Source: a virus. Taken from it: a stretch of DNA of 64,000 bases. The stretch is from IMG/VR virus record IMGVR_UViG_3300010401_000007, positions 1 to 64,000 of that record. One strand, written 5' to 3'. Below the pieces are notes generated by a model. The model did no database searches and was not told where the DNA came from. It saw only the letters and a list, made by a program, of their open reading frames with translations. The position numbers were made by a program, and so were the translations under genes. Every line of letters starts with the position of its first letter. Position 1 is the stretch's first letter. Positions 1 to 63,934 of the stretch are shown here, piece after piece.

Positions 1-620
1 ACCTCCCACAGACTCATCCCATCATGCAATCCCTCACACACATAGACCGTGCTATACCTCTTGGGGAATTCGGCAGGACGGAATAAACCGTGATAGAGAT
101 TCGGGGTTGAGGCCCATCTCGTCTGATTCTGATAGGTCCGGTAGACGTAGAGATTATTGATGACGTTGTCTGAGTTGTAGGATGGTACACACCACTCGGA
201 GGTAAGGGGGCACCAAACTACCCCCCATTTGAGGACGGTATCGGGGCTGAGTATCTTTCTCTCAGAGATAAACTGTTGGAGACGAGTTGGGGCGAACTCA
301 GATGACCATATCTCGTATAGCTTCCTAAGAGTCGAGATGAGATTGCCCTTCCACCCGCACATCTTACAGTCACACTCCCCTGTAGACTTCGTGGCGTAGA
401 ACTTCTCAATCCCACAGAACGGACACTCTCCATACCCCTGTAGACCATTCTGACTCATCGTCGTCTTATCGAGACCAATCCCCCAGAATCGGTAGCTCTT
501 CAGGAAGTCCGCTTCCTCTTTGGTACTACCGTTACTCGACTGCTGAGTCTGTGGAGGGGGATTGACGGTGTGGAATTGGGGTGTTGAGGGTGAAGGGAGT
601 CGTTCGGGTAGTCGAGGCAT
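1..620 (-). CDS. DNA primase (primase-helicase), N-terminal part
   Basis: The gene runs off the left edge, so only about 206 residues are visible. An N-terminal linker is followed by a primase-type zinc ribbon (CPFC near residue 59, then CDC and CGW about 15 residues later) and the start of a TOPRIM domain with the acidic motif VCEGLHDGM near the edge. This order is typical of phage primases that synthesise RNA primers and often continue into a DnaB-like helicase; whether a helicase follows cannot be seen. The start at 620 opens the only long frame. An SDR copy is read in frame as ISERK between the zinc ribbon and TOPRIM. It heads the leftward replication block. Confidence 0.8.
   Translation of the reverse strand, partial: MPRLPERLPSPSTPQFHTVNPPPQTQQSSNGSTKEEADFLKSYRFWGIGLDKTTMSQNGLQGYGECPFCGIEKFYATKSTGECDCKMCGWKGNLISTLRKLYEIWSSEFAPTRLQQFISERKILSPDTVLKWGVVWCPLTSEWCVPSYNSDNVINNLYVYRTYQNQTRWASTPNLYHGLFRPAEFPKRYSTVYVCEGLHDGMSLWE
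255..269 (-). repeat. SDR copy
   Basis: SDR means the dispersed dyad with core TTTCTCTGAGAAA; strand gives the orientation reading CTCTGAG. This copy lies inside the primase gene, read as ISERK. Confidence 0.7.
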
Positions 621-731
621 AACGGTTCCTAGGTAGGTAGTCGTAACTCCCTGGTGGTTAAGGGGTTACGTTAGGACGATTATTACGAACCTCGTCTAGA
701 GATCCGGTGTCAATCTACTAGAATAGGGGTA

Positions 732-772
732 GGAGTCTGGTACGGGATATGCGGTCTATTATACCAGACTCC
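732..772. promoter_or_regulatory. 11-bp perfect inverted repeat upstream of small plus gene
   Basis: GGAGTCTGGTA (732-742) and TACCAGACTCC (762-772) are exact complements separated by 19 nt. The element lies in the divergent gap between the primase start (620) and the gene at 797. It could be an operator or a 5-prime leader hairpin; the sequence does not decide. Confidence 0.5.
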
Positions 773-796
773 TCAACCACACTGGAGGGACTATCA

Positions 797-991
797 ATGG
801 TTACTCTGAACGTTCACAATACTCGATTGTCCAAGCGTAAGGAGTCGGAAGAGGAACGAGTAATCCGACTCCTCATGAGCAACCCTACTCTGACTGAAGA
901 TGAGGCACGTAGGGAGCTAGGTCTCTCCCCCCTCTCTGAGAAAGAGGATACTACTAACCGACCGGTTCTGAGTAGTCGATCCTCTTATTAG
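797..991 (+). CDS. small protein of unknown function, 64 aa
   Basis: The start at 797 is chosen because GGAGGGA lies six bases upstream; an earlier in-frame ATG at 749 has no such site and falls inside the inverted repeat at 732-772. The product is short, charged and helical, with a stretch (RVIRLLMSNPTLTEDEARRELG) that resembles a small helical DNA-binding or protein-binding unit, but no family is recognised. The C-terminus contains an SDR copy read as LSEKE. The 3-prime end overlaps the convergent gene 954-1469 by 38 bases. Confidence 0.5.
   Translation: MVTLNVHNTRLSKRKESEEERVIRLLMSNPTLTEDEARRELGLSPLSEKEDTTNRPVLSSRSSY
933..948 (+). repeat. SDR copy
   Basis: Inside the small gene 797-991, read as LSEKE. 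Confidence 0.75.
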
Positions 992-1469
992 TCGACCTAG
1001 CGTATTCGATTTCCGACCGAGTCGAATCCCCGATATATCCTCCTACGTTTAGTACGAGAATCGAATCGGCTAGATCAATTTTCCTCTTATGCAGTTCGTC
1101 CAAGGCGATTTTCTGTTCGGGAGTGCAACCGATCGTCTCTCCGTGTGTCACGACATCAACTACTACTTCCTGCGGACCCATGCACCCGTCTACAGTAACG
1201 GTCTGCTTGGAGACCTTGGCATTCGGGTAGTGACCTACCGTTAGGACAATGTCCCCTGACATCGTCAGGTTGTAATTCGCCTTCTGGAATGCCTCATAAA
1301 ACCGCGTACTTCCGCACAGACATACCACCCTCGGGACTGTCACACCGTACCTACCGAACTCCACTCGTAAGTCGGTTACAGACTCTCGAAACCGTCGTAG
1401 GCGACTCTCTAGATGACATCCGTCTAGGTCGCCACAGTCTGGACATGGTCGCGAGTTCATAGTGTGCAT
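954..1469 (-). CDS. nucleoside 2-deoxyribosyltransferase-like protein
   Basis: 171 residues. A short Cys-containing N-terminus (CPDCGDLDGC) precedes an alpha/beta domain with VVCLCGSTRF near residue 48 and ADSILVLNVGGYIGDSTRSE near residue 135, the pattern of phage proteins related to nucleoside 2-deoxyribosyltransferases, which move deoxyribose between bases or hydrolyse deoxynucleotides. Activity is inferred from family only. AAGGA lies 7 nt upstream, directly after an SDR copy. It sits beside a dNTP pyrophosphohydrolase, which fits a nucleotide-pool role. Confidence 0.6.
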   Translation of the reverse strand: MHTMNSRPCPDCGDLDGCHLESRLRRFRESVTDLRVEFGRYGVTVPRVVCLCGSTRFYEAFQKANYNLTMSGDIVLTVGHYPNAKVSKQTVTVDGCMGPQEVVVDVVTHGETIGCTPEQKIALDELHKRKIDLADSILVLNVGGYIGDSTRSEIEYARSTNKRIDYSEPVG

Positions 1470-1482
1470 GTTATTTTCCTTC

Positions 1483-1499
1483 TCTCTGAGAAAGAGGAG
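1483..1499 (+). repeat. SDR copy
   Basis: Upstream of the deoxyribosyltransferase-like gene start (1469). Confidence 0.8.
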
Positions 1500-1500
1500 A

Positions 1501-2033: not shown

Positions 2034-2050
2034 TTCTCTCTGAGAAAGAG
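2034..2050 (+). repeat. SDR copy
   Basis: Between two genes, next to the start at 2030. Confidence 0.75.
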
Positions 2051-2256: not shown

Positions 2257-4293
2257 CTAGAAGTTGATACCGACTGCCCATGTATCGGGGTGGTACTCGA
2301 TCGAAGTTGGAGTTGGAATACCAATTGCCGTACCGCACGATTCCATCGCCTCTTGGATCTTCTTAATCCTCCATAGGTTAGAGTTATCAGGATCGACTCT
2401 GGGGTCACCTACCTTGGGGAAGTCGAGGATTACCTCATCGTGTAGTTCAAGGTTGATGAACCCACTGAACCCGTCATCCTCCCTCCATTGTCTCAGTAGC
2501 TCATCCACCTTGACTAGTGCCCTCAACTTCCACCAACAGGCAGTCCCCTGTACGAAGTAGTTAAGAGGTATTGTAGGACTGATCCGGCCGTAGTCGGACC
2601 GGCTACACATCAAGGGATACCCCCTCTCAGGATCGACCTCGATATCGGGGATGGTCGAGACATACCCCTGTTTATTGGCCAGAGTGATAATCTGGTCACT
2701 GAGTCGAGCGATATTAGGGAATCGGTCCCGTACTCTCTGGTATGCACCCCTCACACGGTATGTCGAGTCAGCCGTCTCCTCTTGGGCACCGTATATAATG
2801 GCAAAGTTCCCATTCTTGACCCACTGGTAGTAGGTAGCTTCATAGAGATCCTTACAGTTCTTACCGTGCTTATGGAACAACTCTGGGTAGAGAGCATCGA
2901 ATACGACTAGGTGGTATGACCCGTAGTACGGTCCCTGATCGGGATGATTGAATACCTCGACTAGTTCAGGTTCGGGGGCAAAGAATGAGGGTATACGGAG
3001 TTCTAGATTCTTACCGTCGAGTGACCAGAACTCTCGATCAGGACCAGGACGGAATAGGGACTTGACCGATTCCCCACCGTCACCTTTCTTCTTGATGTTC
3101 TGGAGGTTGGGGTTACGGCATGAGCAACGTAACGTGGTCGTTCCCGTCGGGTTAATGTTAGGGTGGAGTCTGTGTACACACCCTTCTTCATGCCAGAACC
3201 GGTTATAGGTCGAGATATCCCCGATCATCTTGGCCGCATGACGCTTCTTCAGTAGTGAGTTAACGAACATCAACGGCTTACCAGTGCATGACCTGCTATA
3301 CCTGTCTAGAGCATCCTTATCGAGTGAGGGGACGTCCGTTTTAGCTTTCTTCCCCGGTCGTCCCTCTAACCCCATCTTGTCGAATACCAGTTCCTTGAGA
3401 GATTGATTAACCGATGAACCTGCGGGCATGACTAGATCATGGTTGTAGCTCTTGGCTATGTTGATACAGACCTTTGTACACCTATCCTCTTCCTCAGAGA
3501 ATTCCTCTAGCACCCTACTAACCTCTGAAGAAGAGAGGGTGAGTCCATCTCTCTCCATCCGATATAGGATAGGTAGGATCTTGAGACGTTCGTAGTATAC
3601 CGCCTCAAGTCCCCTACGCTGGATCTCACCCCATAGAGCCCCCCACAGTTGGAGGGTGTAGTAAGAGTCAGCATTGGCGTAATCAGAGAGGAGTGTGTAA
3701 TACTCATGAGGGTACTCCTTATCGGGGTTGAAATCCTCTCTCTCTTGGGTCTCCCAGTGATGGTACGCTAACGCTCGAAGTAACCACCCGTCCGCTTTCC
3801 AGTCTTCTTCCCCAGCAGACGGCATCTCAGGTAGTCCCTTCTTCGCTATCCTCCACTTGGGTAGATGACGACGACAGTAGTCTCTAGCGGACTTACATGC
3901 CTTCTCTAACTTGTCCTCGTATGGGGAGATATCTACCCCGAGGTATAGCATCACCTGATCGGTTAGGTTCAAGGGCGATCCTGAGTTGACCAAGTGACCG
4001 GCTAGGAGTGTGTCTCTGAGAGAAAGCCAAGGGAATGACTCTAGGTTAGTCACTCCGATCGACTCTAGACAGAGTACATCAAATCTCGCATTGTGTCCGA
4101 CCCTAGTTACTTCATTATTGATTAGTCCCTTGAGGAAATCGATATCCTCGTCTGGGATGATCGGCTGTCGATCGATCGGGTTCACTCCCCATTCAAGGAA
4201 CTTGGTTCCCGACTCGTCTGTGTACGTCACGTAATACGGCTTGCACCCGTGCCGGAGATCGACCCCCGTAGTTTCGCAATCCCATGAGAACAT
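2257..4293 (-). CDS. family A DNA polymerase with 3-5 exonuclease
   Basis: 678 residues. N-terminal DnaQ-like exonuclease: DCETTG (D5, E7), HNARFD (D72), and YANADSYY near 205. Polymerase palm motif A is SLDGKNLELR (D426), the O-helix is WVKNGNFAIIYG (K493, Y501) and motif C is LELHDE (618-620). These fit a replicative phage polymerase. The O-helix arginine that lies four residues before the lysine in E. coli Pol I is a tyrosine here (Y489). An SDR-like copy falls in the exonuclease domain (WLSLRDT). AGGA precedes the start. A structured RNA candidate occupies the gap upstream. Confidence 0.92.
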   Translation of the reverse strand: MFSWDCETTGVDLRHGCKPYYVTYTDESGTKFLEWGVNPIDRQPIIPDEDIDFLKGLINNEVTRVGHNARFDVLCLESIGVTNLESFPWLSLRDTLLAGHLVNSGSPLNLTDQVMLYLGVDISPYEDKLEKACKSARDYCRRHLPKWRIAKKGLPEMPSAGEEDWKADGWLLRALAYHHWETQEREDFNPDKEYPHEYYTLLSDYANADSYYTLQLWGALWGEIQRRGLEAVYYERLKILPILYRMERDGLTLSSSEVSRVLEEFSEEEDRCTKVCINIAKSYNHDLVMPAGSSVNQSLKELVFDKMGLEGRPGKKAKTDVPSLDKDALDRYSRSCTGKPLMFVNSLLKKRHAAKMIGDISTYNRFWHEEGCVHRLHPNINPTGTTTLRCSCRNPNLQNIKKKGDGGESVKSLFRPGPDREFWSLDGKNLELRIPSFFAPEPELVEVFNHPDQGPYYGSYHLVVFDALYPELFHKHGKNCKDLYEATYYQWVKNGNFAIIYGAQEETADSTYRVRGAYQRVRDRFPNIARLSDQIITLANKQGYVSTIPDIEVDPERGYPLMCSRSDYGRISPTIPLNYFVQGTACWWKLRALVKVDELLRQWREDDGFSGFINLELHDEVILDFPKVGDPRVDPDNSNLWRIKKIQEAMESCGTAIGIPTPTSIEYHPDTWAVGINF
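4011..4026 (+). repeat. SDR-like copy
   Basis: Inside the polymerase exonuclease domain, read as LSLRD; may be coincidental. Confidence 0.4.
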
Positions 4294-5716: not shown

Positions 5717-5733
5717 TTTCTCTGAGAAAGAGG
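5717..5733 (+). repeat. SDR copy
   Basis: A 15-bp dyad, CTTTCTC-T-GAGAAAG, just before the start at 5705. Confidence 0.85.
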
Positions 5734-6234: not shown

Positions 6235-7145
6235 GGGTTATCCTCTATAACATACTCTCCCTTAAACACAGATATCATCTTATCGTACATCTCTTGAGGA
6301 GTCTGACAGTCAATGTACTCAGGAACCGTATCGGGATCAGAACTACGAATACCGGCTATGTAATTGGGATGTAGTTTGACCCTGAGTCTACGTAGTGTCC
6401 TCCCCGTCTCCTTTTCTTCTGTGACTGTTTGTGGGATGTTATTCACCTTCTTCGTTGTCGTGATCGATTTCACCTCCTTCTCAATCGATAACCGGCAGAT
6501 ATAGTCACATACGTCACTCAGCCATAATGCGGTGGCACCCCCTAGGTCCGGTCCCATCATAGACTCTACCCACTGACTCCTTACCACGGCCGGTCTTCGG
6601 TCTGATTTATCGCGGTTATGGTCCTTCTCTTTGACAAGTACCACTGTATTATGTGACCCGTTAAGATACGGTCTCATAACCTCTCTGGCCTTCTCACTTC
6701 TCCCCCGATACTGCTCCTCACTAATCAGACCGAACGATAGGATCTCTGGGATACTCTGAACCCCTAGAGACTCTTTCAGAGCAATATCCTGTAGACTAGT
6801 CGCACTATCCAGTACGACCGTCTTATAGGGGTGCTGTCGGCTATTCAATTCGTCAGCTAGATCTACAGCTTTCTTGATACTATCGACTCGGAGATACTTA
6901 ACCCCTGGTATCTTCGTAACCGACTTTGCACCACCCGTTCTGTTAGGTTCCATCGCCACCAGTAGAAGAGGTTTAGGGAATAGACACGCTAGGGTTGTCT
7001 TCCCACAACGATTTACCCCGTAAAGGCATACCCTTAGAGGATCATCCTCTAGTTCTGATACATCGATAGCTTGATCGAGGATACTACTCGTCTCTCTTCT
7101 CTGAGGAAGAGGACGACTGTTCTGGACTTGGTTGATTCGGGGCAT
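6231..7145 (-). CDS. Sak4-like RecA-fold ATPase
   Basis: 304 residues. Walker A is GVNRCGKTT near residue 40 and Walker B is TVVLDSAT near residue 103, within an AAA/RecA-like NTPase domain typical of phage Sak4 annealing ATPases that drive homologous recombination with an SSB-like partner. The start at 7145 (MPRINQ) has AGAGGA upstream. A degenerate SDR (CTCTGAGGAAGAGG) is read in the N-terminal linker as LPQRRE. Its first 60 bases overlap the end of the zinc protein gene 7084-7272. Confidence 0.75.
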   Translation of the reverse strand: MPRINQVQNSRPLPQRRETSSILDQAIDVSELEDDPLRVCLYGVNRCGKTTLACLFPKPLLLVAMEPNRTGGAKSVTKIPGVKYLRVDSIKKAVDLADELNSRQHPYKTVVLDSATSLQDIALKESLGVQSIPEILSFGLISEEQYRGRSEKAREVMRPYLNGSHNTVVLVKEKDHNRDKSDRRPAVVRSQWVESMMGPDLGGATALWLSDVCDYICRLSIEKEVKSITTTKKVNNIPQTVTEEKETGRTLRRLRVKLHPNYIAGIRSSDPDTVPEYIDCQTPQEMYDKMISVFKGEYVIEDNP

Positions 7146-7281: not shown

Positions 7282-8388
7282 CTATTGGAGTTCATTGAAC
7301 AAGCTATCCACTCTTCGCATACCCAACATCCCCCCGTGTACTAACATCTCGTTATAGTCAGTCGGTAGGTCCATCCCGAACACACCAAACGGGGTTCGGT
7401 AGTGCCAGGTTCCAGGGGTGATATCTCTCTTAACTGTCACCATATTATACCAATCACAGATCTCTTCTAATAGCGGGTCTAAACAAGTAGTCTTGAACCG
7501 AGTAATATCCTTCTCCGTCACTTCCACCATCCACCGCATGAAGTAGTGTTCCGGTTCATCTTTCATGTACTGTCCGAGTCGGCTGTAGTACGACTCCCAT
7601 GACTCCTCTGGGTGATTCTTGGTCGCCTTATGTCGGACGATAGTACCCTTTCCGCCTGATAAGGGCCGGCGGATACAGTTGTACCTGACACCACCGATCG
7701 ACTTATCTCTCCACCTCTTATTAGACCGATTCCAGAAGTCGCTATCCTGTTTCTCTGAGAGAGAGATGATATATAACATCGTCTGGAGATCAAATGTCAG
7801 TTGCCGCTTAATCTCCTCAGCGTCGATATCCCCCTTCGTCTTGTTCTCGTACAACCACACCCTACCATCGATCAGATCCACCCCATCCCATTTACCCCTC
7901 AGTCTCACTACCCGACCGCTGGGTAACTTATAGGGCACATCGAATACCTGTTCCCGTAAGAGGGGTTCTATAGCGACCTGCTCAGTGTTCTTCCTCCAGT
8001 AGTCCAAGTAGATGGGGAACTGAGTCCTACAGACATTCGACCAGTGGTTAATCTGGTCCGTGTCGTAGGGGTACTGTTCGTATAGCTTTTTAATATAATC
8101 CTCCATGTGTCCGCCGATCTTCATATCTCCCACGAATCCACTACGATTGATATTCCACTCCATTTCCTCTTCACATGCATGCCACATCTCCCCGTAGGAG
8201 AGTCTATGGGAGAATCGATCAGACGGCTTGATCCCCTCGATATTGGCTAGTCGAAACCTCTCTCGGCATCGGAGGAACGATTGAATCATCGACTGTGTAA
8301 TACCACCTAGTGGTCCCTCACCTTCTGGACCCTTCCATAGCGGACCACGGGGCTTGAGATTCAGCTTCATGTTAGTTGGTAGGGGCAT
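7282..8388 (-). CDS. PD-(D/E)XK nuclease, Cas4/RecB type
   Basis: 368 residues. The start at 8388 has GGAGG seven bases upstream. SMIQSFLRCRERF (near 33) is the conserved N-terminal helix of the family; GKWDGVDL (near 168) and YENKT (near 182) carry the catalytic D and ExK, and QLTFDLQTMLY is the QxxxY motif. Phage members process DNA ends for recombination or degrade DNA. An SDR copy is read as LSEKQD between the QxxxY helix and the C-terminal part. Next to the Sak4-like ATPase, which fits a recombination pair. Confidence 0.78.
   Translation of the reverse strand: MPLPTNMKLNLKPRGPLWKGPEGEGPLGGITQSMIQSFLRCRERFRLANIEGIKPSDRFSHRLSYGEMWHACEEEMEWNINRSGFVGDMKIGGHMEDYIKKLYEQYPYDTDQINHWSNVCRTQFPIYLDYWRKNTEQVAIEPLLREQVFDVPYKLPSGRVVRLRGKWDGVDLIDGRVWLYENKTKGDIDAEEIKRQLTFDLQTMLYIISLSEKQDSDFWNRSNKRWRDKSIGGVRYNCIRRPLSGGKGTIVRHKATKNHPEESWESYYSRLGQYMKDEPEHYFMRWMVEVTEKDITRFKTTCLDPLLEEICDWYNMVTVKRDITPGTWHYRTPFGVFGMDLPTDYNEMLVHGGMLGMRRVDSLFNELQ
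7750..7766 (+). repeat. SDR copy
   Basis: Inside the nuclease gene, read as LSEKQ. Confidence 0.75.
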
Positions 8389-9804: not shown

Positions 9805-10262
9805 GATACCGCCTCCTTCTTCTCTGAGAGAGAGATGATACTAGCCGGTCTGATCTTCTCCCAGTACCGAACCCCCATATCGGATAGAGTGTACTTACCA
9901 TCTCCCGTTCGTTTGAAGTACCTACTACTATTCACATAGGTACACATCGATCCGTAAACTGATCCGTAGTTGTATCCAGTAATCCTAGCTAGGTCATTTG
10001 CACTAGTTGGACCATGTTCACCCAAGTAGCAGACCATAGAGTTAACCTTCTCTATAGATGTCTGCTTCTCGGTTATCCTAGATACATCAGGTACTCTCTT
10101 ACTGGGAGCTACGGACAATCGACTGACGGTCAAGTCCTCGCTACTCCGTACACTACTCTGTAAAAGTACCCTCCTCGCCCTCTTCAGTGTCCGTAGCTCA
10201 TCCCTTAACACCTCGATCTGAGCATCCAAGACTGCCACACTGTAGTTAAGTCGATCGGACAT
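9801..10262 (-). CDS. coiled-coil and winged-helix DNA-binding protein
   Basis: 153 residues. Residues 8-35 are a heptad-like helix (DAQIEVLRDELRTLKRAR). Residues 85-140 resemble a winged helix (TSANDLARITGYNYGSVYG then YTLSDMGVRYW). The C-terminus reads through an SDR as SLSEKKE. Likely a small regulator or nucleoid-type protein; target unknown. It overlaps the next start by 4 nt. Confidence 0.55.
   Translation of the reverse strand: MSDRLNYSVAVLDAQIEVLRDELRTLKRARRVLLQSSVRSSEDLTVSRLSVAPSKRVPDVSRITEKQTSIEKVNSMVCYLGEHGPTSANDLARITGYNYGSVYGSMCTYVNSSRYFKRTGDGKYTLSDMGVRYWEKIRPASIISLSEKKEAVS
9819..9836 (+). repeat. SDR copy
   Basis: Upstream of the glycosylase start and in the C-terminus of the winged-helix gene (SLSEKKE). 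Confidence 0.8.
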
Positions 10263-10895: not shown

Positions 10896-11427
10896 GTTGT
10901 TTCTCTGAGAAAGAGGTAGATACCGAGGACTGATAGAGTCTCTGGGCGTAGAGAGCGAGTAATGCGGCATCGGCACACTGTCTGCTGATCTTGGTATCAG
11001 GAATCAGTCGTCTCGCCCATGAGTGGAGTTCCCTCTTACGTTGGTCGTACTCCAGTCCGGGGGGAATATTGATACCTAGGGACTTCTGCCAAGTTATAGG
11101 AGCTACTGATTGAGATGTTCTATCTGAGAATCCTAATGACACTAGACACATCTGACACCAACCGTAATTGATACCTAATTCAAACATACTTGATCCTGGT
11201 TGTCCTCCATGTTTTCTATCCCCCCCGCTCTTAGTCTTACCCTTTGGGATGTATCCAGTTACTTTCTCGATCACGGCACGTACTGGGTACTTAGAGTCCC
11301 AACCATACTTTAATCGGGTGTATAGATCCTCTGCTGTAGGGGGCATATCTATCAGAGTTAGACTCTCTCCGGATAGTATTGCTATACCCCCATTCACCCC
11401 CGGATCGATCCCGATGAACGTACTCAT
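10888..11427 (-). CDS. RuvC-like Holliday junction resolvase
   Basis: 179 residues. IGIDPG (D8), VIEKV (E52) and CADAALLALY (near 155) are the RNase H-fold acidic positions of phage RuvC-like resolvases, which cut branched DNA before packaging. SRRLIPD-type basic residues lie before the last motif. The C-terminus is an SDR read as FSEKQHG. It is the second gene of the leftward early unit behind the divergent region at 11655-11911. Confidence 0.78.
   Translation of the reverse strand: MSTFIGIDPGVNGGIAILSGESLTLIDMPPTAEDLYTRLKYGWDSKYPVRAVIEKVTGYIPKGKTKSGGDRKHGGQPGSSMFELGINYGWCQMCLVSLGFSDRTSQSVAPITWQKSLGINIPPGLEYDQRKRELHSWARRLIPDTKISRQCADAALLALYAQRLYQSSVSTSFSEKQHG
10900..10916 (+). repeat. SDR copy
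   Basis: Before the start at 10895, in the resolvase C-terminus (FSEKQ). Confidence 0.8.
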
Positions 11428-12213: not shown

Positions 12214-12501
12214 GTGCGTACCGCCCCCGCCCGTGGCATCTGCCGATGGTCTAAGGATGCCGCTAACGGTAACCGGTGTCTCGTGATCAACGAGGTGTTG
12301 TACGAAGTGGTCGAGATCGAGAGCGGATACGAGCTACTGAGGATGGATGAGCGGAACGACCGTGTTATCCGCTACACGGTCACTCCCCTGAATAACGATT
12401 ACTGGACCTGTACCTGTCCTGACGCTAAGTACAAGCGGGGCGGTCATAGCTGCAAACACGCTATGGGACTTCGTGCCGGACTCCGTGCATTACCCTTCTG
12501 A
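12214..12501 (+). CDS. SWIM zinc-finger protein, 95 aa
   Basis: The C-terminal half has CTCPDAKYKRGGHSCKHA, a CxCx(n)CxH SWIM zinc finger, a nucleic-acid or protein interaction module. The GTG at 12214 is preferred because GAGGT lies 7 nt before it; the in-frame region upstream has atypical composition and overlaps a better-placed small frame. Followed after an SDR by the next gene. Confidence 0.6.
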   Translation: MRTAPARGICRWSKDAANGNRCLVINEVLYEVVEIESGYELLRMDERNDRVIRYTVTPLNNDYWTCTCPDAKYKRGGHSCKHAMGLRAGLRALPF

Positions 12502-12510
12502 GAAAGAGGA
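12495..12510 (+). repeat. SDR copy
   Basis: Provides the Shine-Dalgarno of the gene at 12517. Confidence 0.8.
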
Positions 12511-13353: not shown

Positions 13354-13363
13354 CCTACCTACT

Positions 13364-13379
13364 ATCTGAGAAAGAGGAG
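13364..13379 (+). repeat. SDR copy
   Basis: Provides the Shine-Dalgarno of the gene at 13386. Confidence 0.8.
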
Positions 13380-15333: not shown

Positions 15334-15354
15334 CTTCTCTGAGAGAAAGAGAGG
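15334..15354 (+). repeat. SDR copy
   Basis: Provides the Shine-Dalgarno of the gene at 15361. Confidence 0.8.
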
Positions 15355-23184: not shown

Positions 23185-23187
23185 GAC

Positions 23188-40960: not shown

Positions 40961-40963
40961 ATC

Positions 40964-48254: not shown

Positions 48255-48767
48255 ATGGCTAAAAGTAATCGAGGTAACGGCCGTCAGGACTTCTCTGAGA
48301 AAGAGGAGAGTAGCCGGCCTATGATCACTCCGGACCCTAAAATACAGGATCTAGTAGTCAGTCGGGGGGATAGGATTATGATTCATACAAATCTTACTAT
48401 AGGTGAAGGTGAGGCTACTCCCTCTTCCTCAGAGAATACTAACAGCACTCCCAAGAAGTCTCGAAGGAAGGAACCTCCTATCGCCATCACCATGTTAGAT
48501 CCTACCGAGGTAGGTCTAGCACTGTGGAGAGCGAGACTACTATTCGTCACCTTTATCGATCAGTTGGCCCTACTCCTTACCGACAAGATCACAGCAGCAC
48601 AACTCAAGAAGGCTGCACAGGACGAGAAGTGTCAACTACTCTCCACTATCGAGAAATGGGAACCGATCAAGAGGATACAGGGGGTGCTAGATCGTATCCC
48701 TGTACCCCCCGATGCCGATATTAACCCCAAGACTGGACTTGATCAGGAGGATGAGGGAGATGAATGA
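48255..48767 (+). CDS. hypothetical protein, 170 aa
   Basis: Start at 48255 with GGGAG eight bases upstream. Disordered N-terminus carrying two SDRs (FSEKEES; SSSENTN), then a helical domain (EVGLALWRARLLFVTFIDQL). Divergent from the prohead protease. Not recognised. Confidence 0.5.
   Translation: MAKSNRGNGRQDFSEKEESSRPMITPDPKIQDLVVSRGDRIMIHTNLTIGEGEATPSSSENTNSTPKKSRRKEPPIAITMLDPTEVGLALWRARLLFVTFIDQLALLLTDKITAAQLKKAAQDEKCQLLSTIEKWEPIKRIQGVLDRIPVPPDADINPKTGLDQEDEGDE
48290..48307 (+). repeat. SDR copy
   Basis: Near the start of the plus gene at 48255 (FSEKEE). Confidence 0.8.
48421..48437 (-). repeat. SDR variant
   Basis: Second copy in the same plus gene (SSSEN). Confidence 0.6.
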
Positions 48768-52863: not shown

Positions 52864-54600
52864 TTACCCTCCTGTGACGGATAGGACTGATCGACGTAGT
52901 AACTTCCTCACCGACCTAGGGTCAGATACCACTCTCTGAGAGAGAGGAGGTACGGGACTGACACCACCTGTAGGAATTTCCCCCGTTTTCCCAATAGGGT
53001 CGGGTAGGGACTTACTCTCTTTCCCGCCCCCCTTACTCGGTCTAGGTGGTAGTGTCCCCTTTCCACCCTTATTCTCAGGTCGGGGGGGTTCCTCAGACCC
53101 ACCGTCAGTTACCGCAGCGACACCCCCCTCATCTACTTCTCCAGTACCCTCAGCGAGTTCTAGTCTCTCCTGTTGAGACACCATATCTACTCCTGCGGCT
53201 TGCTCTTGCAGCTTGGTAAAGATCGAGGGGAGTACGTCACCACCGTCTACCGGCTTGAGTCCCCGTCGTACCCTGATCTCATTCACCATCATCGTACCGT
53301 CTACGGCCCCAGCTTGGTTCTGTTGCTCCACAATCGTAGGGTCATCTAACTTCGGCATCACGATCGAGCATCGAATACCCTTTCGAGATAGACCCCAGTC
53401 CTTCACAGGACCGTCAGTCAGGGTGTTCGCGACCATCCCCAAGAAGGGTTCATAGGTCGAGATACGAGACCGTTGGATCTCGGCCCAGTCCTCTGCATAC
53501 GATCCCGTTGTCTTGAGTCCTACCGTCGAGAGGTTAATCCCGAACACCCCCGCGAGGGTCTGTCCGGCTACCCGTTCCCACTCGGTAGAGAACCCCATGA
53601 CATCAGCGGAGGGCTTAGTAGGATTCACCACGGCGGCAGGACGGGTAGGATCTCCCCCACCGAAGAACATCGCCTTACCGTGGTTATCAGGTCCGGAGTG
53701 TACGGCTTCATACTCGGCACGGGCCGCGTCCATCACCTCTTTGGTTGCACCCGGCATATCAATCACCACAGACGGATTAACCCCGTTCTGCATGACACTC
53801 CAGCAACTACGGTCGATCATCTCCAGTAGATCGATACTCACCTGATTAGCTTGAGTCGGTGAGACTGGGGACCAGTTATAGAGGGGGTGGGGATTCTGGA
53901 TGATGTAGAAGTTACGAGCATCGATCGTAACCCCAAGCATCCCACTGATCGCAGTAGGAATTACGCCTATTAGTCCTGCTGGATAAAAAGGTTGGATACG
54001 GTAACCACCCAGGGGATAGATATTACTGCTGAGTCCGGGGACGGGGACCACGAGAGCCGTAGGGACCACGAATAACTTACCTGGGGCTCCAGCCTTGTTA
54101 TGCGGACCCCAGATCATTACCCGACCTGTCAGATAATACTGAATGATGATCTTGGCTAGGAATGTGGGCCAAGTATCGACCTTATTAGGGTGTCGTAGAA
54201 TAGATACCAGAGGGTGATTCTCAAAGGGGGCGTACTCCACATCCTGTTGTGACCCCCCTGGATTAGCACGACCCTCGATACCTCCTACCCTCTTCTCCAG
54301 TCCGATCTTTGATGCCGACATACTACTGATCAGGGTCCGACACCCCATGTAAATAATCGACTGGTAGTGTTGGACTTGATTGAACGGTGAATTGAGAGGA
54401 TAGGACGGTAGGTTATTGTTGAACGTCGCCTCTAGGTACTTTGCATAGTAGGCGTTAGCTGGATCTCTCTGTATCTGCTTCGCCTCCCATTCTCTCCGTC
54501 TCGGTAGGAATGCACTGGTCGGGATATCGAGTTGACCAGTAGACGGAGCTAGACTCGGGCCCTGAGTCCAGTTCGGTTGGTAGTATGACGAGGGAATCAT
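52864..54600 (-). CDS. portal protein, HK97 type
   Basis: 578 residues. VQHYQSIIYMGCRTLISSMS (77-96) is the characteristic helix of HK97-family portals; HPLVSILRHPN (near 132), FLAKIIIQYYLTGRVMIW and the later GVFGINLSTVG (near 375) support it. The C-terminal 100 residues are disordered and Pro/Gly-rich, with an SDR read as PLSQRVV. A 10-bp hairpin lies 8 nt upstream of the start. Confidence 0.8.
   Translation of the reverse strand: MIPSSYYQPNWTQGPSLAPSTGQLDIPTSAFLPRRREWEAKQIQRDPANAYYAKYLEATFNNNLPSYPLNSPFNQVQHYQSIIYMGCRTLISSMSASKIGLEKRVGGIEGRANPGGSQQDVEYAPFENHPLVSILRHPNKVDTWPTFLAKIIIQYYLTGRVMIWGPHNKAGAPGKLFVVPTALVVPVPGLSSNIYPLGGYRIQPFYPAGLIGVIPTAISGMLGVTIDARNFYIIQNPHPLYNWSPVSPTQANQVSIDLLEMIDRSCWSVMQNGVNPSVVIDMPGATKEVMDAARAEYEAVHSGPDNHGKAMFFGGGDPTRPAAVVNPTKPSADVMGFSTEWERVAGQTLAGVFGINLSTVGLKTTGSYAEDWAEIQRSRISTYEPFLGMVANTLTDGPVKDWGLSRKGIRCSIVMPKLDDPTIVEQQNQAGAVDGTMMVNEIRVRRGLKPVDGGDVLPSIFTKLQEQAAGVDMVSQQERLELAEGTGEVDEGGVAAVTDGGSEEPPRPENKGGKGTLPPRPSKGGGKESKSLPDPIGKTGEIPTGGVSPVPPLSQRVVSDPRSVRKLLRRSVLSVTGG
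52932..52950 (+). repeat. SDR copy
   Basis: In the portal C-terminal tail (PLSQRV). Confidence 0.75.
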
Positions 54601-56493: not shown

Positions 56494-56617
56494 CGGATTC
56501 CTTTCTCTGAGAAAGAGTACAGTAGGGACAGGGTATCCCTCGGAGGCGACCATTGATCCTCCGGACTACCAATGTGCCATACCCTCTACACCATCTACAG
56601 GGGGACGTTGTTCCCAT
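56423..56617 (-). CDS. small zinc-ribbon protein, 64 aa, overlapping
   Basis: CRWCRGYG and PCPYC spaced 16 residues apart form a DnaJ-like zinc ribbon (CxxCxGxG). AAGGA lies 8 nt before the ATG, and the start overlaps the co-chaperonin stop by 23 nt. Its C-terminal half overlaps the next gene by 71 nt in another frame and includes an SDR (LSQRKES). Overlap makes it less certain. Confidence 0.4.
   Translation of the reverse strand: MGTTSPCRWCRGYGTLVVRRINGRLRGIPCPYCTLSQRKESDDRSTDRGVDKGDHQQDRPQSTT
56501..56518 (+). repeat. SDR copy
   Basis: Perfect 15-bp dyad upstream of the start at 56493. Confidence 0.85.
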
Positions 56618-57041: not shown

Positions 57042-57057
57042 TTCTCTGAGAGAAAGT
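57042..57057 (+). repeat. SDR copy
   Basis: Upstream of the co-chaperonin start. Confidence 0.8.
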
Positions 57058-57118: not shown

Positions 57119-58180
57119 TCATCTCCTCGGTATCGGGTAGAACTTGGGGTCGACCTTTCCATTCTTGGGTACTGTACTTACTACCTCGAATGTACTCTTC
57201 ACGGGCGGGGTAAGGATCATGTGGATGAGGAGGACAAAGGCATCTGCTTCATCAGGTGACCGTCCTATCATGTCCTTGAGAGTCAACCTCTTGTCCTTAC
57301 TGTCCCTCTTCTGCTTAGGCGGTAGAATCTGAATCCCGTCCTCGTTATATTGAATGGGGAACTTAGACAGTTGACGGTGTAGCTCTGCTAACTCAGGGGT
57401 GTTTGATGGGATGCCGTATCCTGGTGGATCTTGAAAACCCCCTGACCCAGTGGGAATGGGATTCGGATCGAGAAGCTTGGACGCCTCTGCGTATAGTTGC
57501 ACCCGTCGTGATCGGTATATCGCCTTCTGTTCCTTCAACTCCTTCTCTTCCTCAGAAGAAGGATTCTGGATTAGATTACTTGGCGTCTCCCCGAATCCAA
57601 TCGTCCTGACGGCATACCCCTGATCCCTCAATCGATCGGCGTGCTGCTTCCCACCACCCCCCCTGTCGAACCCCACATTGTAGGCGTATATATTCCATTT
57701 CCTCATGAGTCCGAGACACTGTCCAGTGATGACAGAGGTGTCAGGAGTTCTAAGGCTCTGCAATTCGAGGATACCCCGTATATCTCCAACACAGAAGGCT
57801 GTATTGTCACCACCCTCTCCGACATCCACCCCCATATAGATATCTCCGCATCGTAATGACTCATTACCAGATTGGGGGGGTCGGATACCGTATCGAACGG
57901 TATAAGGCTGCAACTCATTAGCTATCCTCTCGGCTCTCTGTAACCATCCTTGGGGGAATAGGAATAGTCCTGGTCCCTTATAGAACTGGGCGTAGAGTTT
58001 GACCGTCTTCTCATGGTCATTTAGGGTATTGCTCCTCTCTACGAAGTCAGCCCATGACAACACACCGGGGATGACCTGCTCCCCAGTGGGTTGCTGTCCT
58101 GCCGCTATCTGAGCATGAGCTAGTCTCACACTTGGAGACTGCATAGCTGAGATACGGATGATCTTCCTGAATAACCCCAT
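57119..58180 (-). CDS. large terminase, C-terminal nuclease half (separate gene)
   Basis: 353 residues. FRKIIRISAMQSPSVR at 4-19 is the segment that in ordinary large terminases directly follows the ATPase domain. RNase H-fold acidic residues: YMGVDVGEGGDN (D119), NVGFDRGGGG (D172) and SPDEADAF near 312. With the ATPase half (59668-60309) it sums to a normal terminase of about 566 residues. An SDR lies upstream of the start. Three unrelated genes separate the halves. Confidence 0.8.
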   Translation of the reverse strand: MGLFRKIIRISAMQSPSVRLAHAQIAAGQQPTGEQVIPGVLSWADFVERSNTLNDHEKTVKLYAQFYKGPGLFLFPQGWLQRAERIANELQPYTVRYGIRPPQSGNESLRCGDIYMGVDVGEGGDNTAFCVGDIRGILELQSLRTPDTSVITGQCLGLMRKWNIYAYNVGFDRGGGGKQHADRLRDQGYAVRTIGFGETPSNLIQNPSSEEEKELKEQKAIYRSRRVQLYAEASKLLDPNPIPTGSGGFQDPPGYGIPSNTPELAELHRQLSKFPIQYNEDGIQILPPKQKRDSKDKRLTLKDMIGRSPDEADAFVLLIHMILTPPVKSTFEVVSTVPKNGKVDPKFYPIPRR

Positions 58181-58192
58181 GACCGTGTCTAT

Positions 58193-58206
58193 TCTCTGAG
58201 AAAGGG
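58193..58206 (+). repeat. SDR copy
   Basis: Upstream of the terminase nuclease-half start. Confidence 0.75.
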
Positions 58207-58438: not shown

Positions 58439-58646
58439 GTCGCTCCCTCCACTTTCTCTGTTTCTCAGAGAAGTAGTTGATATGAACTAGACACACACTC
58501 TTCTCACCATGTCGAGGACGGCTACAGACTAGACATAGACCCAGTCTTTTCTTCTTCTCCGTCCTAGACCGACCGTTACCCCTACACCGTACACAGGTCT
58601 TATAGGGGTATCGACACCATCTCAGCCGACAGTGGGAACATAACAT
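58422..58646 (-). CDS. zinc-binding protein, 74 aa
   Basis: Start at 58646 (MLCSHCRLRWC) with GGGAG upstream. CSHC, CVRC, CLVC and a following C/H give two zinc sites among basic residues, as in phage HNH-associated zinc proteins, but no nuclease motif is present. C-terminus is an SDR (YFSEKQRK). Between the terminase halves. Confidence 0.5.
   Translation of the reverse strand: MLCSHCRLRWCRYPYKTCVRCRGNGRSRTEKKKRLGLCLVCSRPRHGEKSVCLVHINYFSEKQRKWRERHEDRR
58458..58475 (-). repeat. SDR variant
   Basis: C-terminus of the zinc gene (YFSEKQ), upstream of the start at 58438. Confidence 0.6.
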
Positions 58647-60309: not shown

Positions 60310-61085
60310 CCTATCGTTCTCCTAGGAGTAGCAGTTAGTGCAGGGTCTTGATATCTACCGTTAAACGACTTGATTAGTTCAGCTAACTCACTACTAGTGA
60401 ACCCTGCAAATGACTCTCTAACAGGAACCAACTTGAGATACTTATCAATCGCCTCCACCTTACTCAACACCTCCTTGGGTACATCCCCATCCCATATCAC
60501 TACTGGTTCTACCTCAATCCATCGACGTAAGAGCCAGATGATACTCTCTGAGAAAGAGGATGACACATTAACGCTACTACACAGATAAGTAGGAATACTG
60601 GACATGTGCCGACCTGATATATTCTGCCACAGATACCGTTCGGACCCTTTATATAGTGGTCGAATATGACCAATACTGTCGTCGCACAGTAATCTCTCCT
60701 CACACCTAGCCCACCTCAAACACTCACTACCCTTCTCCATATCCCACTCATCCCTCACATACCACTCTAACCCTACTGGGCATTGACCCTCCTTTTCCCA
60801 CACCTTACACATCATCAAGAACCGTTCATCATCCTTGAGTCGATCCAACTTATCGAGTTCGGGGTTCATCTTTACTACTTCCTTGAACCACTTACGGAAC
60901 CAGACCTCATCAATGTGGTGATAGGCCAGAACCTTACTATATTTCAGAACTTCTAGAGAGTTGTACTCTACTGACCCATCTCCTACCCCTATTACTTCTA
61001 CTATTTCATTAGGAGTAGTCACTGTGTTAGGTGATTCAATTACACTCGTCCATCTGCTACCTACCTTAATTTCATACGAAGACAT
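60306..61085 (-). CDS. hypothetical protein, 259 aa, paralogue of 61072-61644
   Basis: Start at 61085, AAGGTG upstream. FLMMCKVWEKEGQCPVGLEW and SIIWLLRRWIEVEPVVIWDG are also found, slightly changed, in the next gene. The pattern is loosely like planctomycete short repeat-companion proteins. An SDR is read as SFSES before the second block. Position beside the terminase is unexplained. Confidence 0.45.
   Translation of the reverse strand: MSSYEIKVGSRWTSVIESPNTVTTPNEIVEVIGVGDGSVEYNSLEVLKYSKVLAYHHIDEVWFRKWFKEVVKMNPELDKLDRLKDDERFLMMCKVWEKEGQCPVGLEWYVRDEWDMEKGSECLRWARCEERLLCDDSIGHIRPLYKGSERYLWQNISGRHMSSIPTYLCSSVNVSSSFSESIIWLLRRWIEVEPVVIWDGDVPKEVLSKVEAIDKYLKLVPVRESFAGFTSSELAELIKSFNGRYQDPALTATPRRTIG
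60544..60559 (+). repeat. SDR copy
   Basis: Inside the gene 60306-61085 (SFSES). Confidence 0.75.
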
Positions 61086-61644: not shown

Positions 61645-62282
61645 TCTACACCCTCTTTCTCAGAGACAGGTTCCGGAGTCTGCCCCGTTAACTCCACAAT
61701 TCTCGGTCCCACAGGATCTACTACATCACTCTTCCCACACAGTCGATCCCAGTAGTCAGGAGGCATAGTATTGACCACCTCATCGTCGAGTTGAGGTAGA
61801 GTCGTCTTGACATCTCCCCCTAACCGAAGGAGATTGATCCTGTCTCTTATACACCCTTGGATAATCATTAGAAACCTAGGATCACCCGTCTGCCCCCTTA
61901 CCTGCCGCTTAATAGTTACCTCTCCAGGTTGCTTCTCTATCCTATTCTCACCAGTAGGTACACCTCTCCTACCCAGCACTGGAATCGACTTGTAATAGTG
62001 AGTCTTCTCGATACTCTTCACCTCAGCGTCAGCACATGACTTCTCCCATGAGTCCCAAGCTGATGCCTCTACTAAGTCCACCCGAGCTAGCTCCCCACTG
62101 ATCAGAGTCCGTAGATCCTCCCCCATCTCTTTCAGCCATCTATCCCGAGTCCTCTTCAAGTCACCTGTTACTACCGCCCGGCTAACCCCGAGCTTGGTGG
62201 CGATCTCCTGGTGTGAGGCACCCGTCAGGTACAGAGCAACGATAGTCCTCTGCCTCTGGATCAGTTGATACTCGTTCGGCAT
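61641..62282 (-). CDS. small terminase subunit (probable)
   Basis: 213 residues. N-terminal helix-turn-helix (LYLTGASHQEIATKLGVSRA, 17-36) with recognition helix, then a helical oligomerisation region (SAWDSWEKSCADAEV) and acidic C-terminus ending in an SDR (VSEKEGVE). Small terminases recognise pac or cos sites. Position at the head of the packaging block supports it. Confidence 0.65.
   Translation of the reverse strand: MPNEYQLIQRQRTIVALYLTGASHQEIATKLGVSRAVVTGDLKRTRDRWLKEMGEDLRTLISGELARVDLVEASAWDSWEKSCADAEVKSIEKTHYYKSIPVLGRRGVPTGENRIEKQPGEVTIKRQVRGQTGDPRFLMIIQGCIRDRINLLRLGGDVKTTLPQLDDEVVNTMPPDYWDRLCGKSDVVDPVGPRIVELTGQTPEPVSEKEGVE
61651..61667 (-). repeat. SDR copy
   Basis: C-terminus of the small terminase (VSEKEG), upstream of the start at 61644. 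Confidence 0.75.
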
Positions 62283-62503: not shown

Positions 62504-62532
62504 TTGCCTCAGAAGTGGGCAGAGACTAAATT
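62504..62532 (+). promoter_or_regulatory. sigma70-type promoter for the winged-helix gene
   Basis: TTGCCT (62504-62509), 17-nt spacer, TAAATT (62527-62532), 36 nt before the ATG at 62569. Same GGGGTTGC context and spacing as the promoter at 11842, and both lie near a TAGGAATT or AGGAATTCC dyad. Confidence 0.5.
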
Positions 62533-62568
62533 GAACTGTACAGAACTGAGGCATCGACCGGAGAACAT

Positions 62569-62868
62569 ATGGAACTAGATCTCACCCCCTTCCAGAAACG
62601 GAAGTCCCCCATCCGAGTCCTACAGGTACTCTCTCAAGCCGTAGGACCGATGGCCCGTAAGACCATCGCCCCACTCACGGGGTTGATGATGGAGAACGAA
62701 CGTATCCCCAGTGAGACGAACACCTACAAGTTCCTCACCTCGGAGAAGTACGTCACCGAGAAGGATCTTACCTTCGACGATGACCATACCGAGACTGTGT
62801 ACGCCATTACCCAGAAGGGTCGTAAGGTACTAGAGGAGATGAGTAAGCTACCAGTCGAGATTAAGTAA
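62569..62868 (+). CDS. winged-helix DNA-binding protein, 99 aa
   Basis: CGGAG precedes the ATG. RVLQVLSQAVGPMARKTIAP, then YKFLTSEKYVTEKDL and YAITQKGRKVLEEM, is a winged-helix layout with a wing and final helix, as in PadR or phage regulators. Own promoter and terminator, opposite in direction to the packaging operon, so a regulator of that operon is plausible. Confidence 0.6.
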   Translation: MELDLTPFQKRKSPIRVLQVLSQAVGPMARKTIAPLTGLMMENERIPSETNTYKFLTSEKYVTEKDLTFDDDHTETVYAITQKGRKVLEEMSKLPVEIK

Positions 62869-62881
62869 CCCACCAACTATT

Positions 62882-62914
62882 AACCCCACCCTGATCGGTG
62901 GGGTTATTTATTTT
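62882..62914 (+). terminator. rho-independent terminator
   Basis: AACCCCACC (62882-62890), 6-nt loop, GGTGGGGTT (62897-62905), then ATTTATTTT. It follows the winged-helix gene by 13 nt and merges into an SDR copy. Confidence 0.75.
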
Positions 62915-62928
62915 CTGAGAAAGAGAGT
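62911..62928 (+). repeat. SDR copy
   Basis: Directly after the terminator at 62882. Confidence 0.75.
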
Positions 62929-62931
62929 GAA

Positions 62932-63165
62932 TTACGGTATTGGACCCCTATTCACATTGACCATATAAACCCAACCCGGCTTGATCACATGTAGATTCCC
63001 CTTCTTATCTGATATCAACATCCCATCTCCATCCTGTTTCTCATACATCACTGTTGCAGGGTTAACTATATTTACCCAAGTATCAGGTACATACAGAAAT
63101 CGTACTTCATGTACCGTGTCTGAGTATGGGTACTCTTTATTAGGTTCCATGTGTATCATCTTCAT
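62932..63165 (-). CDS. hypothetical protein, 77 aa
   Basis: Start at 63165, AAGGGA eight bases upstream. Beta-rich (EVRFLYVPDTWVNIVNPATV) with a closing VIKPGWVYMV. Its start overlaps the end of the Mom-like gene. Not recognised. Confidence 0.5.
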   Translation of the reverse strand: MKMIHMEPNKEYPYSDTVHEVRFLYVPDTWVNIVNPATVMYEKQDGDGMLISDKKGNLHVIKPGWVYMVNVNRGPIP

Positions 63166-63934
63166 TCACTAATCCCTTCTTCGGGTAAGGAACTCGTAAC
63201 CTCTCTACCTCTCGTCTCATCTTCTTATCGAGCGGCATCAAGTATCGGTGCTTACTACTACCCATGACCTTACAGTGTGAGTGATTGACCTTGGTCCCGT
63301 GACGGTGGATCAAGGTACGACCGTGTACCCTACCCTCCCCTGGTATCCAGTATTCCCCCGCTGCCGTACTCATCCCCGTGTAGACCCAATTCCCAGCTTG
63401 GTAGATGACTCCTACATGCTCCTGGTCAGGGTCAGCGTAGGAGATCACTAGTCTTAGATCCGGATACCGTCCGCGGAGTAGGCGTAGACACTCACTAACG
63501 ATCTTCGTGACTGGGGTCTTGTGGGAACGGAGAGCAATGCGAGCCAGTTCGCAGCCTTCACGGTTCTCGATACCGTACCGTTTGAACATTCGATCCATAC
63601 CGACACCAAATACAACTGCCCCCCGATAATCCATATCCTCCCAGACTCCGAGGTGTACCAACTTACTTCGGGGCATAGTTTTAGAGTAGTGCCAGTTGGT
63701 GACAGAGTACACTGCTGCTTCATAGGTACACCAATCGACTCGGAGTTGACACGGTTCCCCCGTATGTTTTCTCTGAGAAAGAGGACTAGTCGTCTCCTCG
63801 GCAGATCTTATCTGGGCAGCTTGCGAAAGTACCTGTGGAGTTGGTCCATATTTTAAGTTCTGTCCCGCATGAGTTACATCGGATAGAGGGAGTAGTCTCG
63901 GTGGGAGTCTGGGCACGGTCCTTCTCCTTCTCAT
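63140..63934 (-). CDS. Mom-like DNA-modification protein
   Basis: Up to 264 residues. AAVYSVTNWHYSKTMPRSKL (74-93), then VHLGVWEDMDYRGAVVFGVG and YADPDQEHVGVIYQAGNWVY near 175, match the phage Mu Mom family, a GNAT-fold enzyme that modifies adenine and blocks host restriction. The only in-frame ATG (63934) lies 150 nt inside the overlapping zinc-finger gene; the conserved domain begins near 63740, just after an SDR (LSQRKHTG), so the true start may be a non-AUG codon there. Confidence 0.7.
   Translation of the reverse strand: MRRRRTVPRLPPRLLPLSDVTHAGQNLKYGPTPQVLSQAAQIRSAEETTSPLSQRKHTGEPCQLRVDWCTYEAAVYSVTNWHYSKTMPRSKLVHLGVWEDMDYRGAVVFGVGMDRMFKRYGIENREGCELARIALRSHKTPVTKIVSECLRLLRGRYPDLRLVISYADPDQEHVGVIYQAGNWVYTGMSTAAGEYWIPGEGRVHGRTLIHRHGTKVNHSHCKVMGSSKHRYLMPLDKKMRREVERLRVPYPKKGLVNEDDTHGT
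63768..63785 (+). repeat. SDR copy
   Basis: At the end of the zinc-finger gene, inside the mom-like frame (LSQRK). Confidence 0.8.

What the first reader, a model, noticed from the sequence alone, without database searches (positions are those of the whole stretch)
255..63785. About 50 copies of one short dyad (SDR) scattered through 64 kb of phage genome
The sequence TTTCTCTGAGAAA (often extended to CTTTCTCTGAGAAAGAGG, with variants GAGAGAGAGG, GAGAGAAAGAG and CCTCAGAGAAG) recurs about once per 1.2 kb, in both orientations and in every functional block. The two halves are mirror complements around one base, as in a dimeric protein site. It resembles in concept the stoperators and start-associated sequences of mycobacteriophages, but the sequence is unrelated to those. 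It may be a genome-wide repressor, nucleoid, partition or translation signal.
Basis: partly seen in the sequence, partly recalled or inferred. Interest (0 to 1): 0.92.

Follow-up and report, generated by a model that had tools for sequence, protein, structure and literature searches.

The report
Oriented DNA signal repeated throughout phage genome
An uncultured phage, probably of planctomycete bacteria, carries about 50 copies of one short oriented DNA signal, half of them inside genes where codon choice cannot explain them; distant relatives carry their own version, which points to a shared but unidentified DNA-binding system.

Summary
The strict form YYYYCTCAGAGA occurs 44 times (33 on -, 11 on +) against 1.45 (max 5) in synonymous-codon shuffles; a weight matrix gives 53. 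The consensus is CCTCTYTCTCAGAGAA, with G enriched at +13/+14. Only the core is a dyad: the pyrimidine arm is conserved, the purine arm decays, and the arms do not covary. About 40% of sites are intergenic, many overlapping ribosome-binding sites. The rest lie deep in genes, mostly sense, but antisense copies also exceed expectation (8 vs 0.96), which indicates recognition in double-stranded DNA. The exact motif is absent from relatives (~40% identical polA and TerL) and from GTDB genomes beyond about chance. However, several relatives carry their own Y-tract-CAG-purine version, two found by unsupervised k-mer ranking in contigs fetched later. Bearers are scattered on the polA tree. Best reading: an orientation-biased, stoperator-like array of sites for a sequence-specific DNA-binding protein. 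The candidate is a conserved opposite-strand winged-helix protein (62569-62868); the link is circumstantial. Translation, mobile-element and codon-bias readings fit worse. A replication, nicking or packaging signal cannot be excluded. The family lacks a detectable integrase. Interest is above average; the mechanism is unproven.

The parts
255..269 (+). strict site, centre 264
932..946 (-). strict site, centre 937
1482..1496 (-). strict site, centre 1487, upstream of an ATG
2036..2050 (-). strict site, centre 2041, 11 bp before a start
3487..3501 (+). strict site, centre 3496, antisense inside DNA polymerase gene
4012..4026 (-). strict site, centre 4017, inside DNA polymerase gene over conserved residues LRDTLLAG
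5718..5732 (-). strict site, centre 5723, 18 bp before start of 4527-5705
7097..7111 (-). strict site, centre 7102, inside Sak4-like gene
7751..7765 (-). strict site, centre 7756, inside exonuclease gene
9820..9834 (-). strict site, centre 9825, upstream of UDG gene
10901..10915 (-). strict site, centre 10906, end of RuvC-like gene
15335..15349 (-). strict site, centre 15340, before + gene 15361
18361..18375 (-). strict site, centre 18366
19318..19332 (-). strict site, centre 19323
19691..19705 (+). strict site, centre 19700, antisense
22317..22331 (-). strict site, centre 22322
22944..22958 (-). strict site, centre 22949, 11 bp before a start
23187..23201 (+). strict site, centre 23196, reversed, 12 bp before a start
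26619..26633 (+). strict site, centre 26628, antisense
27597..27611 (-). strict site, centre 27602
28093..28107 (+). strict site, centre 28102
29777..29791 (-). strict site, centre 29782, 11 bp before a start
31278..31292 (-). strict site, centre 31283
33170..33184 (-). strict site, centre 33175, 22 bp before a start
34315..34329 (-). strict site, centre 34320
35826..35840 (-). strict site, centre 35831
37017..37031 (-). strict site, centre 37022
38050..38064 (+). strict site, centre 38059, reversed
38442..38456 (-). strict site, centre 38447, 11 bp before a start
40729..40743 (-). strict site, centre 40734
40963..40977 (+). strict site, centre 40972, reversed, 12 bp before a start
42859..42873 (-). 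strict site, centre 42864
46891..46905 (-). strict site, centre 46896, deep in 1031-aa gene
48291..48305 (-). strict site, centre 48296
48422..48436 (+). strict site, centre 48431
51548..51562 (-). strict site, centre 51553
52123..52137 (+). strict site, centre 52132, antisense
52932..52946 (-). strict site, centre 52937, end of portal gene
56503..56517 (-). strict site, centre 56508
57042..57056 (-). strict site, centre 57047, 18 bp before a start
58192..58206 (-). strict site, centre 58197, 17 bp before TerL C-terminal part
60544..60558 (-). strict site, centre 60549
61653..61667 (+). strict site, centre 61662, reversed, 18 bp before a start
63769..63783 (-). strict site, centre 63774, inside Mom gene
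12494..12508 (-). weight-matrix-only site, centre 12499
13362..13376 (-). weight-matrix-only site, centre 13367
26501..26515 (-). weight-matrix-only site, centre 26506
31701..31715 (+). weight-matrix-only site, centre 31710
36041..36055 (+). weight-matrix-only site, centre 36050
36784..36798 (-). weight-matrix-only site, centre 36789
52161..52175 (-). weight-matrix-only site, centre 52166
57545..57559 (+). weight-matrix-only site, centre 57554
58458..58472 (+). weight-matrix-only site, centre 58467
62911..62925 (-). weight-matrix-only site, centre 62916, 48 bp past the end of the winged-helix gene
62569..62868 (+). 99-aa winged-helix (MarR/PadR-like) DNA-binding protein on the strand opposite to most genes; candidate (unproven) ligand of the sites
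   Evidence: Pfam weak HTH_45/PadR; model pLDDT 81; MarR/PadR folds by Foldseek; homologues in G021, G022, G026, G029 and others

Best explanation
The copies are sites for one sequence-specific double-stranded-DNA-binding protein, spread over the whole phage genome and working like stoperators or operators. Bound protein at gene starts and inside genes would block or pause transcription coming from the site's preferred side, or hold the genome silent. Shown: the site is real, long, core-palindromic but asymmetric, over-represented beyond codon use inside coding sequence on both strands with a sense preference, and replaced by other sequences of the same Y-tract-CAG-purine pattern in relatives. 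Inferred: that one protein binds it, that the effect is on transcription, and that the protein is the conserved opposite-strand winged-helix protein at 62569-62868.
For: Excess over codon-preserving shuffles. Deep antisense copies also enriched: 8 vs 0.96 in the window, 3 vs 0.27 and 4 vs 0.84 in G022, 9 vs 2.0 in G026. No arm covariation, so not an RNA hairpin. Sense bias 33:11, as for L5 stoperators, whose orientation tracks transcription (PMC9283540). Genome-specific versions of the pattern in G022, G026, G038 and G029, then as the top-ranked dispersed k-mers in G051 (CTTTCCTCCAGA) and G055 (TTTTCTTCAGGG). Bearers scattered on the polA tree, as expected if specificity changes fast. Winged-helix gene: MarR/PadR-type fold. 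In G022 two copies of its second dyad TTTGAATCCAAA lie in this gene's promoter region (P=0.04); in G021 three copies of its own dispersed dyad lie at this gene (P=0.003).
Against: No integrase, serine recombinase, ParA or HTH_3 match in the window, so no evidence of lysogeny for a silencing repressor to maintain. Known stoperators sit in short intergenic spaces; here more than half are deep in genes and not placed relative to the next start. In the window only one site lies at the winged-helix gene (P=0.34), and that gene is also present in relatives without the pattern, so the pairing is not established. A host-encoded binder is equally possible.
Confidence: 0.4

Rival explanations
1. Genome-maintenance signal read on DNA with a polarity: recombination hot spot, preferred lagging-strand priming site, site-specific nick, or packaging/segregation mark. 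Density and direction matter, not genes.
For: Copies run through genes irrespective of gene starts. Spacing more even than random: window strict set P=0.014, 53-site set P=0.06; G022 dyad P<0.001. One strand preferred. In the few opposite-strand gene regions of the window and G022, copies mostly keep the genome-wide orientation (9 vs 2, small numbers). The family has a primase-type protein, PolA, RuvC-like, Sak4 and PD-(D/E)XK nuclease genes. Single-strand interruptions at a short consensus on one strand only are known in phages (PMC3517423).
Against: Orientation is 3:1, not strict. No orientation switch along the genome. In G026, G029 and G038 orientation follows the gene (5 of 5). Evenness is only marginal in the window with all 53 sites. 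The site is far longer than known primase or Chi sites (general knowledge).
Confidence: 0.22
2. Binding sites of a host-encoded global regulator or nucleoid protein that the phage exploits; different hosts give different consensus sequences in related phages.
For: Bearers scattered on the tree with different consensus sequences. Host control of phage genes through host-regulator sites is known (CtrA, title and abstract of PMC9437464).
Against: An exact 17-mer consensus scan of 84,980 GTDB species genomes gave 42 single hits, about chance, none clustered; a degenerate host site would be missed by this. The host is not identified below phylum.
Confidence: 0.15
3. Translation-initiation element of the start-associated-sequence (SAS) type: a pyrimidine tract plus a purine run serving as Shine-Dalgarno sequence.
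For: 14 of 22 intergenic sites are centred 9-25 bp before a start (expected 2.7). The purine run AGAGAA/AGGAG resembles a Shine-Dalgarno sequence. Sense bias.
Against: 31 of 53 sites are inside genes. Intragenic ones are no closer to a downstream start than random positions. Antisense copies are enriched. Reversed copies also sit at starts. The 'uniform intergenic' null is generous because true non-coding gaps in phages lie mainly just before starts.
Confidence: 0.15
4. Mobile or insertional short repeat, or a coincidence of codon usage.
For: Many near-identical copies in both orientations.
Against: Copies over conserved residues in PolA (DTLLAG block) fit ungapped into the alignment, so at least that one arose by substitution. 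Flanks are not duplicated (no conservation beyond about 25 bp). Synonymous and codon-order shuffles fail to reproduce the count.
Confidence: 0.04

Closest known systems
Stoperators of Cluster A mycobacteriophages (L5-type immunity repressor)
   Same: Dozens of copies across one phage genome, asymmetric site, orientation tracks transcription, consensus specific to the phage.
   Different: Different sequence. L5 sites are 13-mers in promoters and short intergenic spaces; here most are deep in genes with some antisense. Core is palindromic. No integrase or lysogeny module seen. Binding protein not proven.
Start-associated sequences (SAS/ESAS) of Cluster K mycobacteriophages
   Same: Short repeated sequence absent from host genomes, partly symmetric, often overlapping the ribosome-binding site (14 of 22 intergenic copies here); function unknown.
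   Different: SAS copies are almost all at starts, 11-19 per genome and restricted to non-structural genes. Here they are in all blocks, mostly intragenic, and in both orientations.
SPbeta repeated element (SPBRE) bound by MrpR
   Same: Short repeated element dispersed over a phage genome and recognised by a phage master repressor.
   Different: SPBRE sites are in promoter/intergenic regions; the sequence and the proposed binder's fold differ (MrpR is a recombinase fold, the candidate here a winged helix).
Localized single-strand interruption sites (T5, phiKMV-like, phage tf)
   Same: Short consensus repeated along the genome with strand preference, consensus differing between relatives.
   Different: Those sites are on one strand only and far fewer (14 in tf). 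No nick was or could be tested here.

Membership tests
Cluster A (L5-type) stoperators | about 20-30 asymmetric copies across the phage genome | tested here: met
   44-53 copies; left arm conserved, right arm decays
Cluster A (L5-type) stoperators | located in promoters and short intergenic spaces | tested here: not met
   31 of 53 inside genes
Cluster A (L5-type) stoperators | orientation correlates with direction of transcription | tested here: inconclusive
   33:11 bias with the majority strand, but in opposite-strand regions copies keep the genome-wide orientation
Cluster A (L5-type) stoperators | bound by the phage's immunity repressor, in a temperate phage | tested here: inconclusive
   no integrase, resolvase or HTH_3 in the window; contig incomplete; binding not testable with these tools
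Cluster K SAS | copies lie within a few nt upstream of start codons, one orientation | tested here: not met
   enriched at starts, but most copies are intragenic and 11 of 44 are reversed
SPBRE / MrpR | binder is a tyrosine-recombinase-fold repressor | tested here: inconclusive
   PF00589 gives no match in this record or 10 relatives; remote folds not excluded
Localized single-strand interruptions | sites on one strand only | tested here: not met
   33:11 between strands
Localized single-strand interruptions | sites nicked in virion DNA | not testable with these tools
   needs native virion DNA
Host-type iterated signals (HIP1, Chi, uptake sequences) | the same motif over-represented in the host chromosome | tested here: inconclusive
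   42 scattered single hits in 84,980 genomes; host genome not identified

The most novel reading that the evidence does not exclude
A family of uncultured phages shares a bipartite, oriented DNA signal (about eight pyrimidines, CAG, about four purines, 7-8 bp, then GG), kept by selection inside coding sequences on both strands at intervals near 1.5 kb. Its exact sequence is reset in each lineage, and its job is on the DNA itself (replication, recombination, nicking or packaging polarity) rather than gene regulation.
Probability: 0.22. Interest if true: 0.85.

Novelty: new variant of a known kind. Interest (0 to 1): 0.62.

Why it matters
Dispersed phage binding-site arrays are known mostly from a few cultured temperate phages and mostly between genes. 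Here an array runs through genes and along both strands. Distant relatives carry their own version of the same pattern, without any recognisable lysogeny module in the contigs examined. That makes the specificity and turnover of such arrays comparable across an uncultured family, and gives one small candidate protein and one defined DNA site to test.

Tried and rejected
RNA hairpin or Shine-Dalgarno-sequestering stem: no arm covariation. Promoter: no -35/-10-like conservation upstream and intragenic copies ignore downstream starts. Protein-level repeat: intragenic copies were seen in all three reading frames (translations). Known RNA family: none in the window. Other over-represented words in the window (ACGGTAA, TAGCGGC) are frame-locked codon pairs, not DNA signals. 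Close relatives: none found with portal, capsid, TerL or polA queries, nor in GenBank phages for DNA, portal, exonuclease or TerL. Genes shared only by motif-bearing relatives: none shared by all of them. The model of the ParB-like 523-aa protein was too poor to use (pLDDT 38). One motif finder run without a fixed site fraction degenerated and was replaced.
Full report
OBSERVATION. The window is positions 1-64000 of a 66,693-base IMG/VR record. TTTCTCTGAGAAA with up to two mismatches has 74 matches (palindromic copies counted on both strands) against 1.37 in dinucleotide shuffles. Read as an oriented site, YYYYCTCAGAGA occurs 44 times, 33 on the minus strand, which carries most genes, and 11 on the plus strand. 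Shuffling synonymous codons within genes gives 1.45 on average (max 5); shuffling codon order gives 0.25. The ten most over-represented 10-mers of the window are pieces of this motif or their complements. A weight matrix finds 53 sites, with at most about one expected above the same score in Markov shuffles.

ANATOMY. The consensus is CCTCTYTCTCAGAGAA. The core TCTCAGAGA is a dyad around A. The upstream pyrimidine arm stays conserved (C at -9 in 41/44, T at -8 in 42/44, T at -6 in 44/44); the downstream arm fades after GAGAA. Arms pair exactly as often as independence predicts at every position, so neither a strict two-fold site nor an RNA hairpin is being maintained. A weak second block, G at +13 and +14, is enriched (24/44 and 28/44 against 10.5 expected). 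I noticed it first in the window profile, so that test was not blind, although pooled relatives show it too.

PLACEMENT. Gene calls were made by a simple codon-usage caller of my own. Of 53 sites, 22 are intergenic, 20 sense and 11 antisense in genes; intergenic DNA is about 10%. Fourteen of the 22 intergenic sites are centred 9-25 bp before a start codon (expected 2.7), where the purine arm can double as a Shine-Dalgarno sequence. The null is generous because true gaps in a compact phage lie mainly before starts. Intragenic sense copies are no nearer to a downstream start than random positions. Deep antisense copies are themselves enriched (8 vs 0.96, none of 300 shuffles). An mRNA-only role does not predict that, so I infer recognition of double-stranded DNA with an orientation preference. 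One copy inside DNA polymerase lies over residues conserved among relatives without an alignment gap, so it arose by substitution. Spacing of the strict set is somewhat more even than random (CV 0.72, P=0.014), but with 53 sites this weakens to P=0.06.

RELATIVES. A TerL signature pattern recovered 45 contigs, and a polA alignment a further group. All are distant: best polA matches about 41-46% identical. None carries the window's exact motif in number, and an exact 17-mer scan of GTDB genomes gave 42 scattered single hits (my estimate of chance is about 30). But the generic pattern Y7-CAG-RR is enriched in coding sequence over synonymous shuffles in G022, G026, G038 and G029, and not in G030, G040 or G042. 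The pattern was framed after seeing the window and G022, so the later contigs matter more. In G051 and G055, fetched afterwards, the top-ranked dispersed k-mers, found without reference to the pattern, are CTTTCCTCCAGA and TTTTCTTCAGGG. Bearers do not form a clade on a weakly resolved polA tree.

SECOND MOTIFS. G022 also has TTTGAATCCAAA (34 copies of its core TGAATCCAA, very even spacing, P<0.001), which alternates with its Y-CAG motif more than expected (P=0.02). G021 has 18 copies of GGCCTTGRAAAGGCTGGGCTCAA, mostly intergenic. Thus several members carry dispersed, partly palindromic sites of unrelated sequence.

WHAT BINDS. No integrase, serine recombinase or ParA was detected in the record or ten relatives, and no HTH_3 match in the window. 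A small protein on the opposite strand (62569-62868) is conserved across the family and models as a MarR/PadR-type winged helix (pLDDT 81; Foldseek E about 4e-4). Copies of the local dyads cluster at this gene in G021 (3 copies, P=0.003) and G022 (2 copies upstream, P=0.04) but not clearly in the window (1 copy, P=0.34). These P values ignore intergenic preference and the choice of gene, so this is a lead, not a demonstration. The gene is also present in relatives lacking the Y-CAG pattern.

INTERPRETATION. The best-supported explanation is an orientation-biased array of sites for a sequence-specific DNA-binding protein, acting like stoperators (PMC9283540). It also resembles SAS sequences (PMC3203893) and SPBRE (PMC10516654) in concept, but the placement tests exclude membership of the first two as defined. 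A DNA-maintenance signal remains the main rival: copies ignore gene starts and, in opposite-strand regions of the window and G022, mostly keep the genome-wide orientation (9 vs 2), although G026, G029 and G038 show the reverse (5 of 5). Localized nicks on one strand (PMC3517423) are a precedent but are strictly one-stranded. A host-encoded binder is also open.

HOST. An ORF inserted in the split TerL carries the TIGR02996 domain (44.1 bits, cut-off 29.05). From general knowledge this domain is characteristic of Gemmata-like Planctomycetota, so that host group is likely but not shown.

LIMITS. No relative close enough for site-by-site conservation was found; contigs are fragments; gene starts are approximate; no binding, transcription or replication data exist for this phage.

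Noticed in passing
window 57119-60309: TerL is split: ATPase part 59668-60309 and nuclease part 57119-58180, separated by about 1.5 kb with other ORFs, one carrying TIGR02996. In G021 the same protein is one continuous gene across the junction; several other relatives also have an interruption there.
   Followed up: partly
window 63140-63916: Mom-like DNA-modification protein (PF25680, E=1.7e-42), suggesting modified phage DNA.
   Followed up: no
window 1501-1887 and 9214-9804: dATP/dGTP pyrophosphohydrolase-like (PF04447) and uracil-DNA glycosylase genes, with a PolA of unusual motif; no adenylosuccinate-synthetase-like gene was noticed. Possible altered nucleotide chemistry.
   Followed up: no
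window 13720-15291: 523-aa opposite-strand protein with a GQHRL (ParB/DGQHR-like) motif, conserved in about 12 relatives; no Pfam match and a poor structural model.
   Followed up: partly
G022 (L123-L126): Two dispersed motifs (TTTGAATCCAAA and CTCTCTTTCAGGA) alternate along the genome; three pairs lie about 31 bp apart.
   Followed up: partly
G023 (L127-L128), five sites: AGTGAGTATACTA repeated in intergenic DNA 40-54 bp from gene starts; looks like a shared promoter/operator.
   Followed up: no
G046 (L156-L158): Clusters of a GAGCGAACCGA repeat at 37-bp period in several places (tandem arrays).
   Followed up: no
window 1-620: The record begins inside a primase-type gene (zinc-ribbon N-terminal part only), so the contig end is internal to the genome.
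   Followed up: no
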